Of a stretch of DNA of 64,000 bases, positions 1,186 to 51,295 are shown in pieces; the stretch's first letter is position 1, and every line of letters begins with the position of its first letter. The translations under genes and the position numbers were made by a program. The notes below the pieces were generated by a model that was given only the letters and a program-made list of their open reading frames with translations, was not told the DNA's origin and ran no database searches. Origin of the DNA: Phlyctochytrium arcticum (Eukaryota; Chytridiomycota; Chytridiomycetes; Chytridiales; Chytridiaceae); assembly GCA_025602905.1 (NCBI GenBank), contig JAHLKI010000038.1:1-64000 (forward strand), given 5' to 3'.

Positions 1186-1233
1186 GATAGACTTCATAAA
1201 TTCGTCCATCCTTGGACAGATTTCGCTCTGCAG

Positions 1234-1364
1234 AAGGCCCGGTGTCAGTGATTATGCCGTTCCCACGGCAACGAGTCTCTGTTGGTGTAATCTAATATAA
1301 CTATAAATGCTATAGAAAAGACTATAATAGTGTCCCGTTCACCCTCCCGTTTCCCTTTGCCGTT
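1234..1364 (+). repeat. DIRS left inverted terminal repeat (shared part)
   Basis: About 131 bases here match the reverse complement of 5880-6010 with few differences. The repeat lies just upstream of the gag-like ORF and includes an AT-rich core around 1290-1330. The outer left extension, 1186-1233, is not shared with the right repeat but is repeated in the internal complementary region. Confidence 0.93.
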
Positions 1365-1444
1365 TTCAGAGCAGCGAGTCTGGCAACATCGACAAGCTCT
1401 AACACAAAACTGACTACGACCCATCAACTAAACAACCTTCACCT

Positions 1445-2446
1445 ATGGCTGAAAATGCTCCTACTCAAACTAACGAAGTCGAGGCCTTGCACAATACGCT
1501 GGCAGGCCTCGGGATCTCAGTGGACGCCCTGCGTACGATCATGGCTCCCCAACAGAATACCAACACTCCTCCCAAGAAAGCTAAGTATAGACTCAATCCT
1601 TGGGACTCGGAGAATGACGACGACTCCGATGGTTCTAGCTCAGACGAAGAGCCACCTACCCACGCCGCCGAAGCCTTTAAAGCTGGACAATGGGATCTAC
1701 CCGAAGAAACTCGCAAGATCCTGGCTCCCGACGACGAAAGCGACGCCCGCCTTTCTCGCTACTACACTCGGCGTATTTTGCGTAAACAACGAGAACCTCG
1801 AGGAGGCTTCTGCAAGTCAGCCGAGCTCGATCCAGCCCTTGCAGATCTCAAAGGGAAACGCGTTGAACATACAGTGGGCGAGCTCGACAAGCAGTATGCG
1901 GATACAGAACGAGATTTCGGAGTCACCGCACGTAACGAAGCAATCCTCCTCTGGAAAGCTAACACGCTCGTCAAATTCCTCAAAGACAGTCGAGAGACCG
2001 GAGAACCTCTCGATGGCGACCAATTACTCGCTAGGGCAGAAGACTTGGCCCGTTCGTTGGAACACCAAGTCACTTACACAGCGCACCTCAAAGCCACCAC
2101 CCGCTTCAAGCGCCGCAAAGCGTTCATCTCCGGAGCTAAGATGCCCGCCGAAATCAAAGACGCAGGAGACAAAGAGCCGCTCCACAACCGTTGGCTTTTT
2201 GGCGACGACCTGGTCCAAACCTGGCGCCAAGCAAACGAGAGACGGAACACACAACAGGTTCTCTCCCTCGCTGCCAATCGAAACCGTGCGCCTACCGATG
2301 CTAGACGCCCGCAGCAACCACACCGACCCCGTGGAGGATATCGAGGTCAGGGAAACGACAGGGGCCGCGGCCGGGGCCGTGGCCAAACCAACCAACAGTA
2401 CCAAAACACCAACCAATTCCAGAACGGGAACCCGACAGCCAATTGA
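1445..2446 (+). CDS. DIRS ORF1, gag-like protein
   Basis: This is an open frame of 333 residues immediately inside the left repeat, at the position of the gag-like ORF1 of DIRS elements. The N-terminal third is acidic and Ser/Asp-rich (around residues 55-70). The middle is charged and helical, and the C-terminal 60 residues are rich in Arg, Gly, Gln and Asn (RGG-like), consistent with RNA binding. No CCHC zinc knuckle is present. The stop codon TGA at 2444-2446 overlaps the start of the next open frame, which lacks a nearby ATG, so the polymerase ORF may be reached by frameshifting or reinitiation. A 682-residue frame (1455-3503) overlaps this ORF but has no domain signature. The assignment rests on position and composition. 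Confidence 0.8.
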   Translation: MAENAPTQTNEVEALHNTLAGLGISVDALRTIMAPQQNTNTPPKKAKYRLNPWDSENDDDSDGSSSDEEPPTHAAEAFKAGQWDLPEETRKILAPDDESDARLSRYYTRRILRKQREPRGGFCKSAELDPALADLKGKRVEHTVGELDKQYADTERDFGVTARNEAILLWKANTLVKFLKDSRETGEPLDGDQLLARAEDLARSLEHQVTYTAHLKATTRFKRRKAFISGAKMPAEIKDAGDKEPLHNRWLFGDDLVQTWRQANERRNTQQVLSLAANRNRAPTDARRPQQPHRPRGGYRGQGNDRGRGRGRGQTNQQYQNTNQFQNGNPTAN

Positions 2447-3524
2447 TAGCCACACTGGAACGAGCGACTTCGCAAGGGGCGAAGCGATGGCCGCTCAGAC
2501 CAGAGCTGACCCCACGGGGGACACAGCGGTGCTGGCAGCAATGGCAGGACAGCGGAGTTGCCCCTTGGGCCAGCAGGATGATTCGGGAGGGAGTGTCAAT
2601 CGAAATTCCACCCCATACAAAGATTCGCTCATGCTCACAAAAGTTTCGTCTGGCAATGAACGATCAAATGATTCTCGACAACCAGATCAAGGAGTGGCTG
2701 GACCCGAAGGCAATAGTGGAGATCCAAGACCCCGAGGAGCGACCGCAATGCACTCTCTCAAACTTGTTCGTAGTGCACCAGCCGAACGGGAAAGCACGTC
2801 CGTGCTTGGATGTCCGACACGTGAATGCGCACATCCCATACAATCACTTCAAGATGGAAGGAATGTCTACCCTTCGGGCTTTGATCCGCCCGGGGGACAA
2901 GATGGTCAAATTGGACTTGAAGGACGCTTACAATGCCCTCGCCCTTCACGCAGCTGCTCGTCGGTTCGTGTCGTTCGAGTGGCGGGGAAAGATCTACCAA
3001 TTCTGCGTTTTACCGTTCGGACTGAGCAACGCACCGCGGATATTCTCCAAGCTGATGCGAGCAGCACTGACACCCCTGCGCGAGAAGGGGATCCGCCTAG
3101 TGTTTTACCTCGACGACATACTGATACTCGGACGGACCAAGGAGGAAACAACGACGGCACTCGAGGAGGTGACGTCACAGCTGTTGCGGTTGGGTTTCAC
3201 CATCAACCTGGCCAAATCGGTTCTACAACCAACCGAGACCATCCAATTCCTCGGATTCCAGGTCAACTCGAGGAATATGACGTTGACGCTGCCCAAAGAC
3301 AAGGTCCGGTCCATCCGGAGAATGACCGACCAAGCAATTCTAAACCAGGAAATGACGGTCCGCCGCCTGGCGTCGCTGATTGGGGTGCTCAACAGTACGG
3401 CGCAGGCGGTCCGCCCCGCGCTGCTCCAGCTCCGTCACTTGCAACGGGGAGCAGAATCGTGGCTTACGGAAAGAGGGCCGCTGGGACGCGTCGATACTAC
3501 TGAGCAAAGAGGCTCTCACGGAAC
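2443..3524 (+). pseudogene. DIRS reverse transcriptase, 5' part of a broken RT/RNase H ORF
   Basis: The frame encodes a reverse transcriptase of the DIRS/gypsy-related type. A conserved LPFGLSNAP motif sits at about 3010-3036, and the catalytic YLDD motif (two of the three catalytic aspartates) is encoded at about 3106-3117. The palm and thumb regions are intact to about 3470. Near 3476-3480 a run of G and C carries one base too many, shifting the frame. A few codons later a solo LTR interrupts the gene after base 3524. The frame has no ATG near its start; the first in-frame ATG is near 2575. Downstream RNase H and methyltransferase-like regions continue from 3781 in another frame. The lesions make this copy inactive on its own. 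Confidence 0.88.
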
Positions 3525-3780
3525 TGTGACAAGCTGAGCTAGTCAGTATGTTTACATCTGTGCTTCACGCGTCGCGCGTCGTGTACGCGTTCCTATTACT
3601 ATGCCGTTGACCGTCCTTTTCATCTGATAGTTAGCGGTAGCCTTTTGTACATAGTCTTCCCCTGTATATAGTCTTGGTCCTCTGGACATCCCCTGCTTTT
3701 CTCTGGCTTTATTCTACCCATTGAATTTTACTAAGACATAAGTTAAGCCCAACAACACTGAACCAACGAGTCCTGTTTTA
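3525..3780 (+). mobile_element. Solo LTR (about 256 bp) nested inside the DIRS element
   Basis: The insertion begins TGTGACAAG and ends CCTGTTTTA, and it is flanked on both sides by GGAAC (3520-3524 and 3781-3785), a perfect 5-bp target duplication typical of integrase-mediated LTR retrotransposon insertion. Removing it together with one repeat copy rejoins the RT and RNase H coding segments across the break. It holds no ORF. It has a TATA-like stretch at about 3663 and a GC-rich imperfect palindrome at 3568-3592. The 3' terminus is TA rather than the canonical CA. A single LTR without internal sequence is the usual result of recombination between the two LTRs of a full element. Confidence 0.85.
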
Positions 3781-4640
3781 GGAACTAACGTGGTGGCGCG
3801 ATTCACTACGGACTTGGAACGGAGAATGCATCATTCCACAGGCGACGGACGAGACGCTGACAACTACGACCGACGCGTCCAGTCGCGCATGGGGATTCAC
3901 CAATTCCACGAACCAGGAGACCAGCGGATTTTGGTCGATATGGGAGCGCCAACAGAGTTCGAACTACCGAGAGCTGAAGACAATCTTGTTCGCGCTACAG
4001 ATTCACCGGGAACAATGGCGCGGAAAAACAGTCCGTCTGAGAACAGACAACACGACGGCGCTAGCGTACGTCAACAACCAAGGGGGTACCCGGTCCCCGC
4101 TCTTACTAGGCATTGCGAAACAGATCGGCACGATCTGCATGGAACGGAACATTCGACTGATAGCTCAGTTCATTCCTGGGAAGGAGAACGTTCACGCGGA
4201 TCGCTTGAGTCGAATAACTTGGGACAGGAACGCATGGCAACTCCACCCTGTCGCATTCCAGACGATTCAAGCAGTATACGGAACTCGAACGATCGATCTT
4301 TTTGCCGACCGCCTGAACCGCCAGCGTCCCCGATTCTTCAGCTGGCGCCCAGATCCGGAAGCGGAAGGCACGGACGCCCTGGCCCAGAAATGGCCAACTA
4401 CGGGAGCGTACGCCAATCCACCGTGGATCCTCATCCCGGACGTCCTCCGTATTCTCCAACAACAACGCGTGCGGGAACTGGTACTGATAACTCCCCGCTG
4501 GCCGGGCCAGGCGTGGTGGCCGGAGCTCTTGCGCCTGAGCGTAGCGCCGCCCCTAGCGATCAAGGCTCACCACAGCTTGTTCCGACCGGTACAACAGGGA
4601 TTCGCACAAGGAGTGGGTCCCGCCAGTTGGGACTCCGTCG
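3781..4640 (+). pseudogene. DIRS RNase H and methyltransferase-like domains, 3' part of the broken ORF
   Basis: Just after the solo LTR the coding resumes with a Trp-Trp motif and then an RNase H domain, with catalytic-type acidic residues in the TDAS (about 3858) and RTDNT (about 4040) segments. It is followed by a region starting IDLFADRLN (about 4280) that corresponds to the N6-adenine methyltransferase-like domain of DIRS elements. That region contains an NPPW motif near 4417, the hallmark of this methylase family. The frame stays open to 4831 but overlaps the recombinase ORF in its last part. Relative to the upstream RT frame it is displaced by one base because of the frameshift near 3478. 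Confidence 0.85.
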
Positions 4641-4641
4641 C

Positions 4642-5718
4642 ATGGAACTTATCCGGGCGGCCAAATTACACGAGGGCCTCTCGCCCGCCGCCGCAGCCCT
4701 TCTCTCAGAGGAGGTTAGGCCAAAGACTAGACGGAACAAGGACTCGAATTGGGGCAAATACAGTGCTTGGTGCCTCGAGAAGGGGCACGATCCAAGCAAA
4801 TACGATGTCCCTGTCGCGGTCAATTTCTTGATGGATATGGCGAATACGCACACATTCAACTCCCTGCGTAACTACTCGAGCACCATATCCTCTACCTGGC
4901 TGCGTCTTCACCCGACGCGACCGCAGCTGGGGCGGACGCCCACCATGACCGATCTCCTACGCCGACTACAGGATCGAACCGCGCGCCCGCGGCTTCCTCC
5001 GCCAACTTGGGACCCCATGATAATTTTGGACCACTTGCGGACTTCACCACTACCACAAGACTTACCGCTGGATGTATTGACAAAACGGACAGCGTTTTTA
5101 GTGAGTCTTTGCTCACTGTGGCGCCCACGATCGGACGTGGCAAGGATTTTGTATGAGGGGATGCGCTTTCAACCGCGCAACAAAATTCGAGCCACATCGG
5201 AGCCTGATTGGAGGACGTGGCCGTTAGACGAGGCCTTAGAGGGGGTCCATTTTCAAGCATTTAAGGTGAAAGAAGGACTCGAGAAACGACGCTACTTGCG
5301 CGCGTGGCCGGCGGATATTCGGATATGCCCGGTACACCACCTATTCCTCCTTCTCCGTCGTACTGAGGACCGCCGCCCGACACCCCATCCGACCTCGCAC
5401 ATTTTCTTGATTACTCGGGCCCCATACCGGGAAGCCTCCGGAGACACAATTGCCAACTGGATTCGAGAAATTATTGCGGCGCCGCCCCACTCTATCCGCG
5501 GGGTATCTTCTTCCGCCGCATGGCTCCGCGGTGCCGCCATCGATAGGGTGTTTGCCGCGGCAAACTGGAGTGAGCGTAGCCGCACGTTTTACCGTCACTA
5601 CCTGCGCGAGGTACCGCAACACCCACCGGTCCCGCCCCTCAGCCATTCGGGCCGACAGATCGATGAGTCCGGGGATGTGGAACATGCCATTCTGGCCGGA
5701 TCTACGAACTATCACTGA
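4642..5718 (+). CDS. DIRS tyrosine recombinase
   Basis: This is a tyrosine recombinase that would replace the DDE integrase in DIRS elements. Taking the ATG at 4642 gives 358 residues. An N-terminal SAM-like/core-binding region is followed by the catalytic domain with Arg161 or Arg163 (WRPR, 5119-5130), the HxxR motif His283/Arg286 (5488-5499) and the nucleophile Tyr317 in FYRHY (5590-5592). All four catalytic positions are present, so the enzyme may still be functional. The frame is open from 3790, overlapping the RNase H/methyltransferase segment, so the true start is uncertain. The stop lies in the internal complementary region. Confidence 0.9.
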   Translation: MELIRAAKLHEGLSPAAAALLSEEVRPKTRRNKDSNWGKYSAWCLEKGHDPSKYDVPVAVNFLMDMANTHTFNSLRNYSSTISSTWLRLHPTRPQLGRTPTMTDLLRRLQDRTARPRLPPPTWDPMIILDHLRTSPLPQDLPLDVLTKRTAFLVSLCSLWRPRSDVARILYEGMRFQPRNKIRATSEPDWRTWPLDEALEGVHFQAFKVKEGLEKRRYLRAWPADIRICPVHHLFLLLRRTEDRRPTPHPTSHIFLITRAPYREASGDTIANWIREIIAAPPHSIRGVSSSAAWLRGAAIDRVFAAANWSERSRTFYRHYLREVPQHPPVPPLSHSGRQIDESGDVEHAILAGSTNYH

Positions 5719-5819
5719 CACCGGGCCTTCTGCAGAGCGAAATCTGTCCAAGGATGGACGAATTTATGAAGTCTATCCGTAAGACGGATGAGCTCTAAAA
5801 AGGCCCGGTGGATGTGATT
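5711..5819. repeat. DIRS internal complementary region
   Basis: Positions 5711-5777 are an exact reverse complement of the element's left end (1186-1252). Positions 5776-5819 are the reverse complement of the right end (5991-6034) with two mismatches. The two halves meet at about 5776-5777, which marks the predicted junction of the circular intermediate. The stop codon of the recombinase ORF (5716-5718) falls inside this region, as is usual in DIRS elements. Confidence 0.93.
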
Positions 5820-5879
5820 CCCTCCCACGACCATATTCAAGTCGCTCAACCCACCACTACTAGGATCTACCTGCTCTTC

Positions 5880-6010
5880 AACGGCAAAGGGAAACGGGAG
5901 GGTGAACGGGACACTATTATAGTCTTTTCTATAGCATTTATAGTTATATTAGAAAACACCAACAGAGACTCGTTGCCGTGGGAACGGCATAATCACATCC
6001 ACCGGGCCTT
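5880..6010 (-). repeat. DIRS right inverted terminal repeat (shared part)
   Basis: This is the inverted partner of 1234-1364. The terminal extension 6011-6034 completes the right end and is repeated, inverted, in the internal complementary region. Confidence 0.92.
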
Positions 6011-6034
6011 CCTAGAGCTCATCCGTCTTACGGA

Positions 6035-6466: not shown

Positions 6467-6471
6467 TATCC

Positions 6472-6805
6472 TGTAGCGGGTTCGTGGTTTGATGAGTGAC
6501 TGCGCTACTGCGCTGCTGCGCAACGCGTCGCGCAGTACATCTTAGTGTCCTAGTGTCTCGGTGTCTTGGTGTCTTGGTGTTCCAGCCAACCACCGACGAC
6601 CTTTACACGTGATGTCTTTTTTTCTTCCTTTTTCTTCTGTATAAAAGCACGTCTCGCATCTGTATTCTTGTTCTTGACACTTTTCTCTTCCTCTGCGAGA
6701 ATACACTACCCGAACTCACCGCGGCCTGGGAAGCCGCATATCTGTCCATTGTCTCTCTCTCCCTCTCTCTCTTTCTTTCTAGTAGCCGACCCCGATCCCA
6801 CTGCA
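6472..6805 (+). repeat. Left LTR of the gag-only element
   Basis: This is a 334-base LTR with TG and CA termini. U3 contains direct CTGCGC repeats and a GC-rich palindrome (6500-6537), then GTGTC-type repeats (6544-6579), a TATAAAA box at 6640-6646 and a CT-rich tract (6749-6780). The first 102 bases recur inverted at the right end of the element. Confidence 0.82.
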
Positions 6806-6813
6806 TGGTAGCA
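6806..6813 (+). promoter_or_regulatory. Primer binding site, tRNA-iMet type
   Basis: TGGTAGCA directly abuts the CA end of the LTR. It matches the complement of the 3' end of initiator tRNA-Met, the commonest primer of fungal LTR retrotransposons. Only eight bases agree clearly, so the tRNA identity is an inference. Confidence 0.6.
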
Positions 6814-6874
6814 CTCCTTGTTGCTTACTAGAACCTCAATACTACCTTCCTCCTTTGTCTCTTCCTACTGCACG

Positions 6875-8329
6875 ATGGGACCCAGCAACAACCGCTCCGC
6901 CAAAGCCAAAGGAAAAGGCAAAGCAACTGACGAAGGCACCTCAGACTCTGGAGAGCCCGCTCAGACGGGAAAAGTCACTTACGCTGCTGCTGCCGCCGCC
7001 ACTTCCGTTCAGGAAGAAGGAGGAAAAGCGGGCGGATTGACCAACCCCGAGAAAACTGCAGCTACGGCTCCCCACCAAGACCCCCACGCTGGCGGCGACG
7101 ACATGGATGTCGACCAACCCCAGAAGGACGTGGCGGGCACCGGGTCAACCAACCCACACACCAGCGCAGGCTCAGCCAGCCTTCCGCAGGAAATGGCTAG
7201 AATGTCCTTGTCTGGACACGCCACGCCCAAGCAAACGCTTTTGTTTGGTGGTCAGAACCCGTTCAGCGCTGCCGACTTGCAACGTATGATGTCCGAGCTC
7301 TCTTCCTTGAAGGGGCAGGTGGCGTCGTTGGAAGCCGAGAAAGCAGCCCAGACAGCCTCTGGTGGTGAAAACCGTGACCATCAACAGGGTACTTCATCCT
7401 CCTTCCAGTTGGATGAAAGAAAGACCCTCCAGCGTCGGGCTGCACAGGCATGCTTTTCCGGTGAAGTAGGTGAAGGGGGCGCCACGGCTATCCGTGACTT
7501 TCTTCAAAAGCACTACGACTACCTGGATAAGTCCCTCGCCACCCCCGATGAACGATGCGGCGACTCCTTCGTGGACTACATCGGCCGAGCACTTGAGGGT
7601 ACGGCGAAGGACTGGTTTACTTCGATGACACCGAGGGAACGCCCTCGGACCCGTCAGGAGTTCGAAGTTATGCTGCGGGACCGCTTTGAGCCGAAGAACC
7701 CCCGCGAATCCATCCTCGCTAACCTGCGCGAATTGACGTGCAGGAACTATTCGACCTACTTAGCCGAATTCAACAAGCTGACCGCGCAACTGACGGCCAG
7801 TGGAGGACGCGAGCACGTCGATGGGGAGGAGATTCGGCGGTACTTCCGCGACGGTCTCGAGCGCGGTGGCCCGTTCTGGTCTTTACTCGTGAAACATGTT
7901 TTCGGGGGTAATCGAGGGTCAAGCTTAACCCAAATCCAAACCGCCGCCGCCCAACACTTGCAAGACTGGGGATGCAACTCCGATGGGGAATATCTCGCTA
8001 TCGCTGGCGCACCCATTGACAGAAAGGGAAAGGGACCTGCCACCGCCACCACTGAGCTCAATCAGCCAGCCAAGAGCGGGGGAGGAAAGAGCCCCAAATC
8101 CAATGTCAGCGCAGCGAATGTCAGCAACCGCGGCAAACCCTACAACCGCGGCAACCCCACCTCCGGACTCTCCAGCTCCAAGGGCAAGGACAGCGACAAG
8201 AGGCCCGCCAAGAAGAACCCCAATGACCAACATAACGGGAATGATCCCCGGATGCATTGTTACATTTGTGGGCTTAGCGGCAACCACTGGACCGCTCGCT
8301 GCCCTGACACCAAGACACCGAGACACTAG
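6875..8329 (+). CDS. Gag protein with zinc knuckle, truncated at the inverted end
   Basis: The product is a 484-residue Ty3/gypsy-type Gag, starting at the first ATG after the primer binding site. The N-terminal 130 residues are low complexity (Ala, Gly, Lys, Pro). The central region (about residues 180-340) resembles the retrotransposon gag capsid domain, with aromatic/charged blocks such as AKDWF and the FEVMLRDRFEP segment. Near the C-terminus, a CX2CX5HX4C zinc knuckle (about 8260-8304) would bind RNA; one spacer is a residue longer than the classic form. The last six codons and the stop are encoded by the inverted U3 copy, so the ORF was cut exactly where the inverted repeat begins and any pol reading frame is lost. 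Confidence 0.85.
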   Translation: MGPSNNRSAKAKGKGKATDEGTSDSGEPAQTGKVTYAAAAAATSVQEEGGKAGGLTNPEKTAATAPHQDPHAGGDDMDVDQPQKDVAGTGSTNPHTSAGSASLPQEMARMSLSGHATPKQTLLFGGQNPFSAADLQRMMSELSSLKGQVASLEAEKAAQTASGGENRDHQQGTSSSFQLDERKTLQRRAAQACFSGEVGEGGATAIRDFLQKHYDYLDKSLATPDERCGDSFVDYIGRALEGTAKDWFTSMTPRERPRTRQEFEVMLRDRFEPKNPRESILANLRELTCRNYSTYLAEFNKLTAQLTASGGREHVDGEEIRRYFRDGLERGGPFWSLLVKHVFGGNRGSSLTQIQTAAAQHLQDWGCNSDGEYLAIAGAPIDRKGKGPATATTELNQPAKSGGGKSPKSNVSAANVSNRGKPYNRGNPTSGLSSSKGKDSDKRPAKKNPNDQHNGNDPRMHCYICGLSGNHWTARCPDTKTPRH

Positions 8330-8407
8330 GACACTAAGATGTACTGCGCGACGCGTTGCGCAGCAGCGCAGTAGCGCAGTCACTCATCAAACCACGAACC
8401 CGCTACA
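8306..8407 (-). repeat. Inverted copy of the LTR's U3 end
   Basis: All 102 bases are the reverse complement of 6472-6573. The homology stops abruptly at the gag side (GACACC...), with a short GACACCAAG-type similarity that could have served as microhomology for template switching. Confidence 0.9.
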
Positions 8408-8412
8408 TATCC

Positions 8413-50561: not shown

Positions 50562-51295
50562 AATCCTGCGATGGGAGCCTTCGAAACGTAGTGTACCTCA
50601 CATCCAGCACTGATGTTCACGGCTCGCGGGGAATGAAGATCTCGAAAATCAACCCCACCCCACAGCACCTGAACAGGATCCCCCCCCCCTTCTGTTTGGT
50701 CTTCGCGTGACTTGCTATTGCTCACCATCCCACTACGTGAGTCGGATCCGATTTCCAGAAATGGCGGGCAAGGAGGAGTATGGTATAGGACTGGATTGCT
50801 GAATACTGGAAATCTGTTCACCAGCAATTGAGTATTCCAATCTGTTCTAGACGCTTTCAATTTCAAAAGAGAGCCGTACTGCTATGGGTCTGGTGAACTC
50901 TGGACGGCGTTTCCGACACACCTAGTCTTGATAGCTACAGTAGATCCGTAGGTTATGCAGTTTAGACTATCTCAAGCTCCTCGTCTTCTTATGGTCATCA
51001 TTCCCCTGACAATTACCTTCATGGTGATGTGCTTTTTTGTGTATATATCGCCTGAACGCCCTGTTTGACTTCTGCAATATTCGAAAAAGACTGGTGCTTT
51101 TGCGAATCTTTGGGACGCGACGCGCTCTGTTCATGATTTCATGATTTGGCTTTGTCAACGACAATTGCATCCCGACAAGTATACAGGTGGCCGTCGGGCC
51201 AACGCAACCTTCAAACTCCTTGACTGTTTTGGTTAAAAACCGCATACGCCGAATACACCACCAACCTATCTGTCTTTAGCGGGCAAGCATTCAAG
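50562..51295. other. Intergenic, no gene seen
   Basis: Between ATP23 and AP-2 alpha on the same strand. A minus-strand frame (50501-50866) overlaps the end of ATP23 and has no ATG; it is not supported. No RNA gene or repeat was noticed. Confidence 0.5.

What the first reader, a model, noticed from the sequence alone, without database searches (positions are those of the whole stretch)
6467..8412. Gag-only retroelement whose two ends are the same U3 end, inverted, with a 5-bp target duplication
Seen directly: TATCC repeats at 6467-6471 and 8408-8412 flank a unit beginning TGTAGCGGG and ending CCCGCTACA. The left part is an LTR plus tRNA-iMet-like primer site plus gag with zinc knuckle. The right part is only an inverted 102-base copy of the LTR start, replacing pol and the second LTR. 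Integrases normally join a U3 end and a U5 end, so an insertion with two U3 ends would mean that the enzyme accepted a fold-back cDNA. A plausible origin is self-priming or template switching: the gag strand near 8306 shares a short GACACCAAG-like similarity with U3. If other copies share this exact structure, it is a replicating family with a new architecture (TIR-flanked gag) rather than a one-off accident.
Basis: partly seen in the sequence, partly recalled or inferred. Interest (0 to 1): 0.85.

Follow-up and report, generated by a model that had tools for sequence, protein, structure and literature searches.

The report
One-off retroelement with two U3 ends
This is a single miscopied LTR retrotransposon whose DNA copy carried the same LTR end at both tips and was still inserted by the integrase, leaving a readable record of the copying accident rather than a new mobile family.

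Summary
Window 6472-8407 is a 334-bp LTR, a primer site and an intact gag, closed by an exact inverted copy of the first 102 bases of U3, flanked by a 5-bp repeat (TATCC). The parent is a chromovirus-type Ty3/Gypsy family in the same genome: two-LTR copies (one examined: RT, RNase H, integrase, chromodomain) and solo LTRs with 5-bp duplications. The gag/inverted-U3 junction was found once among 6 gag-end matches; the other five read on as ordinary gag/pol. Lacking PPT and 3' LTR, the copy should not retrotranspose normally: one event, not a family.

The junction suggests how it arose. Gag's natural continuation resembles the U3 tail (16 matches in 19 columns), U3's letters are kept, and the other side shows no unusual homology. 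The real pair is the single best of 934,752 scanned. Best reading: a truncated plus-strand strong-stop DNA, starting at the PPT/U3 boundary, annealed to gag RNA and primed minus-strand DNA, giving a cDNA with two U3 ends that integrase inserted in concert. The integration step is near certain; the priming step is inferred. Ten searches of an open-licence paper library listed no report of such an insertion.

The parts
6467..6471 (.). left target-site duplication TATCC
   Evidence: sequence; the family makes 5-bp duplications
6472..6805 (+). 5' LTR, 334 bp, TG..CA
   Evidence: boundaries set by solo LTRs with 5-bp duplications
6472..6573 (+). first 102 nt of U3 (left copy of the inverted arm)
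6548..6580 (+). 8-bp-unit repeat tract in U3 in which the copied arm stops; its length between fixed anchors is 19, 27 or 35 nt (3, 1 and 14 of 18 LTRs compared)
6640..6647 (+). TATA-like box TATAAAAG
   Evidence: read by eye; also seen in family LTRs printed
6806..6817 (+). primer binding site TGGTAGCACTCC; 10 of 12 complementary to the 3' end of the genome's own tRNA-Met(CAT) gene plus CCA
   Evidence: comparison by eye
6875..8329 (+). intact gag ORF, 484 aa; last codons and stop supplied by the inverted arm
8258..8302 (+). zinc-knuckle-like motif of gag
   Evidence: read by eye from translation
8303..8324 (+). junction: family copies read on as TGACGCCAAGCACAGAGAC or a close variant here, this copy carries the U3 letters
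8306..8407 (-). exact inverted copy of U3 1-102, ending at the U3 terminal base
8408..8412 (.). right target-site duplication TATCC
   Evidence: sequence

Best explanation
A chromovirus-type LTR retrotransposon made an aberrant cDNA. A plus-strand strong-stop DNA, primed at the PPT and so starting at the exact first base of U3, stopped or was displaced after about 102 nt, in the 8-bp repeat tract. Its 3' end annealed to similar sequence near the 3' end of gag RNA and was extended as minus strand towards the PBS. Normal plus-strand transfer at the PBS then built the left LTR, and plus-strand synthesis ran off the U3 primer on the right. The linear DNA thus had a U3 end at each tip. Integrase joined both in concert, with a 5-bp duplication. 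Shown: anatomy, duplication, exact U3 ends, position and letters of the junction, an integrase-coding parent family. Inferred: primer identity, RNA as template, order of steps. The copy is intact for gag but lacks PPT and 3' LTR and should not retrotranspose on its own.
For: Exact 102-nt inverted U3 and TATCC duplication. 5-bp duplications at 8 solo LTRs and at 3 of 4 two-LTR copies of the family. GTCTGAGGGGGG, a PPT-like tract, abuts the U3 start at 7 3'-LTRs, so PPT priming explains the exact right end. The junction pair is the one best of 934,752 pairs and its similarity lies on the U3-letter side; the other side scores 0-3, ordinary in background. 8-bp length steps in the same tract point to slippage. 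U3 and U5 tips agree at 12 of the first 16 positions. Pieces of the C3 copy encode RT, RNase H, integrase and a chromodomain. Repeated PPT priming and displaced plus-strand strong-stop DNA are described for Ty3 (PMC5371799, passages).
Against: One event only, so no replicate. The scan used 3,018 nt of internal sequence (gag and the first part of pol of one copy), not the whole element. Control scans with the LTR in sense or reversed orientation reach scores of 13 and 14, so the score alone is not rare; its coincidence with the real junction is. A review states that integration during infection needs integrase action on both U3 and U5 ends (PMC11054761, passage), so use of two U3 ends is not the expected course. 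End-joining of two cDNA pieces before integration could leave a similar junction. No reads were available to check the assembly.
Confidence: 0.66

Rival explanations
1. Gag plus strand as primer: plus-strand synthesis stopped in gag, its 3' end folded back on its own U3 (or on another plus-strand strong-stop DNA) and copied U3 to its end.
For: Gives the same overall anatomy and also explains the exact right end by run-off; GAC (8306-8308) is shared by both sides.
Against: A gag primer should leave gag letters in the homeologous tract; the tract carries U3 letters, and similarity before the switch is only 3 nt, a score reached by 7.9% of 20,000 random pairs.
Confidence: 0.17
2. Two cDNA fragments (LTR-gag and a U3 tip) were joined by microhomology-type end joining before integration.
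For: 16 of 19 matching columns at the join would suit annealing of resected ends; also compatible with one later concerted integration.
Against: Needs two breaks and a join inside the particle or nucleus; nothing in the sequence requires it.
Confidence: 0.1
3. Rearrangement after an ordinary insertion (nested inverted element plus deletion, or gene conversion).
For: Truncated copies exist in this genome, e.g. the C59 copy whose gag is cut off by unrelated sequence, with a dispersed repeat beginning about 285 bp beyond.
Against: The right flank would then abut a U5 end; to find an exact U3 end beside a matching 5-bp repeat needs a coincidence of about 1 in 1024 besides an exact breakpoint.
Confidence: 0.04
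4. Assembly artefact (false palindrome).
For: No reads were available; the contig start is only 6.4 kb away.
Against: The 214 nt left and 166 nt right tested match only themselves in the genome and carry the same 5-bp repeat; a chimera would not be expected to make a target duplication.
Confidence: 0.03

Closest known systems
Complex LTR insertions by abnormal template switching in Triticeae (Sabot and Schulman, PMC1950507)
   Same: A one-cycle aberrant reverse-transcription product inserted by integrase, recognised by intact 5-bp duplications.
   Different: In the part read (abstract and first of two parts of section 3) they have three LTRs and two core sequences; here the right end is an inverted U3 piece and pol is missing.
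Plus-strand strong-stop DNA and PPT recycling in Ty3 (PMC5371799)
   Same: Repeated PPT priming and displacement supplies free DNA starting at the U3 base.
   Different: The known transfer is to the minus-strand 3' end; here transfer to gag RNA is inferred (passages read).
TR-GAG non-autonomous elements (search listing only; definition recalled)
   Same: LTR plus gag without pol.
   Different: TR-GAGs have two direct LTRs and form families (recalled); this has one LTR, an inverted U3 piece, and was found once.
DIRS-type retroelements (recalled)
   Same: Inverted termini on a retroelement; a DIRS-like one lies next door in the window.
   Different: DIRS elements use a tyrosine recombinase and make no target duplication (recalled); this one shows a 5-bp duplication and its family encodes an integrase.
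Autointegration products (abstract start of PMC2644782 in a search listing)
   Same: Aberrant use of LTR ends.
   Different: Autointegration joins the terminal CA to an internal site; here the inner join is at U3 base 102.

Membership tests
Ty3/Gypsy chromovirus family (parent family) | Pol order RT-RNase H-integrase with chromodomain | tested here: met
   Pieces of one copy, C3:960001-967097: RVT_1, RT_RNaseH, Integrase_H2C2, Chromo above their cut-offs; rve (E 7e-6) below its cut-off. The window copy itself has no pol; pol of the other copies was not examined.
Ty3/Gypsy chromovirus family (parent family) | Gag and LTR of the family, TG..CA, 5-bp duplication | tested here: met
   The 1500 nt after the LTR match the C4 copy at 1495 positions, the LTR matches the C4 3' LTR at 333 of 334; duplications.
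Ty3/Gypsy chromovirus family (parent family) | tRNA primer site | tested here: met
   C4 copy 12 of 12, window 10 of 12 to the genome's tRNA-Met(CAT) 3' end plus CCA (compared by eye).
Complete LTR retrotransposon (two direct LTRs) | 3' LTR and PPT | tested here: not met
   After 8305 only inverted U3 1-102, no PPT or LTR body.
Mobile gag-only family (TR-GAG-like or TIR-flanked) | Several copies with the same junction at different sites | tested here: not met
   1 of 6 gag-end matches has the junction; one facing pair within 20 kb among 28 listed U3 termini. Counts are lower bounds by the tool's own note.
Integrase-mediated insertion of a two-U3 cDNA | Exact U3 terminus on both sides with duplication of family length | tested here: met
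Integrase-mediated insertion of a two-U3 cDNA | Empty site in another strain | not testable with these tools
   Flanks are unique here; no relatives of this genome are held (note).
DIRS element | Tyrosine recombinase, no target duplication | tested here: not met
   5-bp duplication present; the only Pfam families in its gag ORF are gag-type or a below-cut-off eIF3g match. Other small ORFs were not scanned.

The most novel reading that the evidence does not exclude
Free plus-strand strong-stop DNA is a recurrent ectopic primer in chromovirus particles. Wherever its tail finds similar sequence on the genomic RNA, it starts a minus strand and makes short two-U3-ended cDNAs that integrase accepts. 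This would be a standing route from LTR retrotransposons to terminal-inverted-repeat elements. The orphan 72-nt U3 ends on C41/C63 (one duplicated locus) may be an older trace of it.
Probability: 0.15. Interest if true: 0.78.

Novelty: new variant of a known kind. Interest (0 to 1): 0.5.

Why it matters
The insertion is natural evidence that a Ty3/Gypsy-type integrase can complete a concerted insertion with two U3 ends and no U5 end. Its junction records which strand most likely primed the faulty synthesis. It suggests a simple test: scan genomes for LTR-start sequences facing each other across a short stretch with one target duplication. If common, such events would show a route by which an LTR element becomes a terminal-inverted-repeat element in one step.

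Tried and rejected
Replicating family: rejected. C59 copy as a second case: its gag breaks into sequence that is not U3; a dispersed repeat begins about 285 bp beyond the break, and the 285 bp between have only one weak match elsewhere. C41/C63: 72-nt U3 ends without an LTR body, in one duplicated locus (3,167 identical bases); none of the four TGACA sites in the 3.2 kb of L058 marks a matching left end; left unexplained. Paralogous empty site: none. Gag protein search: no hit at E 0.001 among the 7,995 candidates scored. DNA fold of the 102-nt arm: z -1.0, nothing special. Autointegration: rejected from the position of the inner join. Papers: the ten counted searches (one search was on TR-GAG, and one search listed 25 of 34 papers) listed no paper that, by title and opening of abstract, reports an insertion with two U3 ends. 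The library holds open-licence papers only. I recall, unchecked, in-vitro work in which retroviral integrases join two like ends.

Full report
Anatomy. The unit 6472-8407 begins TGTAGCGGG and ends CCCGCTACA and is flanked by TATCC on both sides. The inverted arms are 102 nt and perfectly complementary. The left part is a 334-bp LTR (6472-6805), whose end is fixed by solo LTRs elsewhere in the genome. Then follow a primer site at 6806 and a gag ORF of 484 aa (6875-8329), matching Pfam Retrotrans_gag. The primer site fits the 3' end of the genome's tRNA-Met(CAT) gene plus CCA at 10 of 12 positions; the C4 copy fits at 12 of 12 (compared by eye). That this gene is the initiator tRNA is inferred from the pattern used to find it.

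Family. The genome is an unnamed assembly of 31.5 Mb in 91 contigs, probably fungal; I did not identify it. A pattern for the U3 terminus lists 28 places. From I sort them by eye as: 7 3'-LTRs preceded by GTCTGAGGGGGG; 8 5'-LTRs, the window's included; 8 solo LTRs with 5-bp duplications (C7, C11, C13, C14, C15, C17, C50, C51; C13 belongs to a related family); 2 LTRs not resolved (C2, C20); 2 orphan 72-nt U3 ends (C41, C63, copies of one locus); and the inverted right end in the window. Of four two-LTR copies of the family, three have matching 5-bp duplications (C3:960001-967097, C4:808410-819372, C4:1328288-1339985); in the fourth (C25:333880-340853) the repeats differ by one base. Pieces of the C3 copy encode RT, RNase H, integrase zinc-binding and core (the core below its cut-off) and a chromodomain, so the parent is a chromovirus-type Ty3/Gypsy family; pol of the other copies was not examined. 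The window copy is young: the 1500 nt after its LTR differ from the C4 copy at 5 positions and its LTR from the C4 3' LTR at 1.

One event. A search with 8230-8330 gave 6 matches; only the window has the inverted arm and the other five continue as gag/pol. The tool notes that counts of repeats are lower bounds. The junction lies shortly before the normal gag stop, so gag is almost complete: it ends ...CPDTKTPRH instead of ...CPDAKHRDPKN. Without PPT and 3' LTR the copy should not be able to complete a normal cycle (inference from known replication), so 'a replicating family of new architecture' is not supported.

Direction of the accident. After TGCCCT, four of the five other copies read GACGCCAAG-CACAGAGAC and the fifth GACGCCAAG-CAGAGAGAC; the window reads GACACCAAGACACCGAGAC. 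Against the first form this is 16 matches, 2 mismatches and 1 gap. One mismatch would be a G-T wobble if the U3 strand paired with gag RNA. Scoring every pair of LTR position (312, U3 and beyond) and internal site (2,996; 3,018 nt of the C4 copy), the actual pair scores 12 and is the only one of 934,752 to do so; 8 pairs reach 11 or more: itself, 4 shifted neighbours and 3 elsewhere. Random sampling gave 0 of 20,000 at that score. Control scans reach 13 with the LTR in sense orientation (6 pairs at 12 or more, the ones printed mostly pyrimidine-rich) and 14 with it reversed (9 pairs, not printed). Such a score is therefore not rare in itself; what is unlikely by chance is that the real junction sits on the maximum. 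The similarity lies on the side where U3 letters are kept. On the gag-letter side the score is 0 to 3 depending on breakpoint, and 7.9% of 20,000 random pairs reach 3. A primer keeps its own letters in the annealed tract, so the U3-bearing strand was most likely the primer and gag plus strand the template. The U3 tract at the break is made of 8-bp units and its length is 19, 27 or 35 nt in 3, 1 and 14 of the 18 LTRs compared, so strands seem to slip there.

Model. In Ty3 the PPT primes plus-strand DNA repeatedly and displaced plus-strand strong-stop DNAs result (PMC5371799, passages). Such a DNA starts at the first base of U3. If one of about 102 nt annealed to gag RNA and was extended, the minus strand would carry U3 at its 5' end; plus-strand completion makes a blunt U3 end on the right, and the ordinary transfer at the PBS makes the left LTR. 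This accounts for the exact right terminus, the missing pol and 3' LTR, the intact left LTR and the junction letters. Integrase then joined two U3 tips; U3 and U5 tips of this family agree at 12 of the first 16 bases, so a second U3 end may pass for a U5 end.

Rivals and limits. Fold-back of the gag strand, end joining of cDNA pieces, later rearrangement and assembly error are weighed in the rival list. The flanks tested are unique, which speaks against misassembly, but no reads and no sister strain were available.

Known or new. Aberrant template switching with intact target duplications is in print (PMC1950507, abstract and part of section 3), and template switching between packaged mRNAs is described for Tnt1 (PMC2923131, passages). 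A review says that integration during infection requires integrase action on both U3 and U5 ends (PMC11054761, passages). Att sites at U3 and U5 have been described for plant Del elements, with a statement that integrase assembles on the two independently (PMC4029996, passages). Ten counted searches of the open-licence library (listed in Tried and rejected) listed no report of an LTR-element insertion with two U3 ends; this is a limited library. I file it as a new variant of a known kind: an aberrant reverse-transcription product fixed by integrase.

Noticed in passing
window 1186-6034: A DIRS-like element with inverted repeats (arms 1186-1252/5711-5777, 1233-1364/5880-6011 and 5776-5819/5991-6034), an RT domain ORF (2308-3534) and a weak Dam-methylase match (3785-4828; E 9.8e-5, below cut-off). 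The ORF 3745-5715 looks like a tyrosine recombinase by eye but has no Pfam or PDB support. Its right half (searched from 3500 on) recurs at nine other places, one of them in two pieces.
   Followed up: partly
window 3524-3781: A stretch of about 257 bp inside the DIRS-like element that recurs alone at many other places (76 to 100% identity), probably a nested solo LTR of another family.
   Followed up: no
L058 (C63:24318-24389) and L059 (C41:50852-50923): Orphan 72-nt U3 ends of this family without an LTR body, beside a near-perfect 41-nt palindrome; the two are copies of one duplicated locus.
   Followed up: partly
L062 (C59:49964-50457 and 50645-51138): 494-bp inverted repeat with 99.8% identity and a 187-bp spacer, 1.7 kb from a truncated copy of the family.
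   Followed up: no
C1:1521660, C3:605840, C3:856847, C20:492131, C2:481080: Related LTR families share the first 62-71 bp of U3 at 86-97% identity but only 68-73% over the whole aligned LTR, as if the U3 tip were conserved or exchanged between families.
   Followed up: no
C4:819194-819372: The 5' LTR of the copy closest to the window element is 179 bp long, 155 bp shorter than its 3' LTR, by an internal deletion.
   Followed up: no
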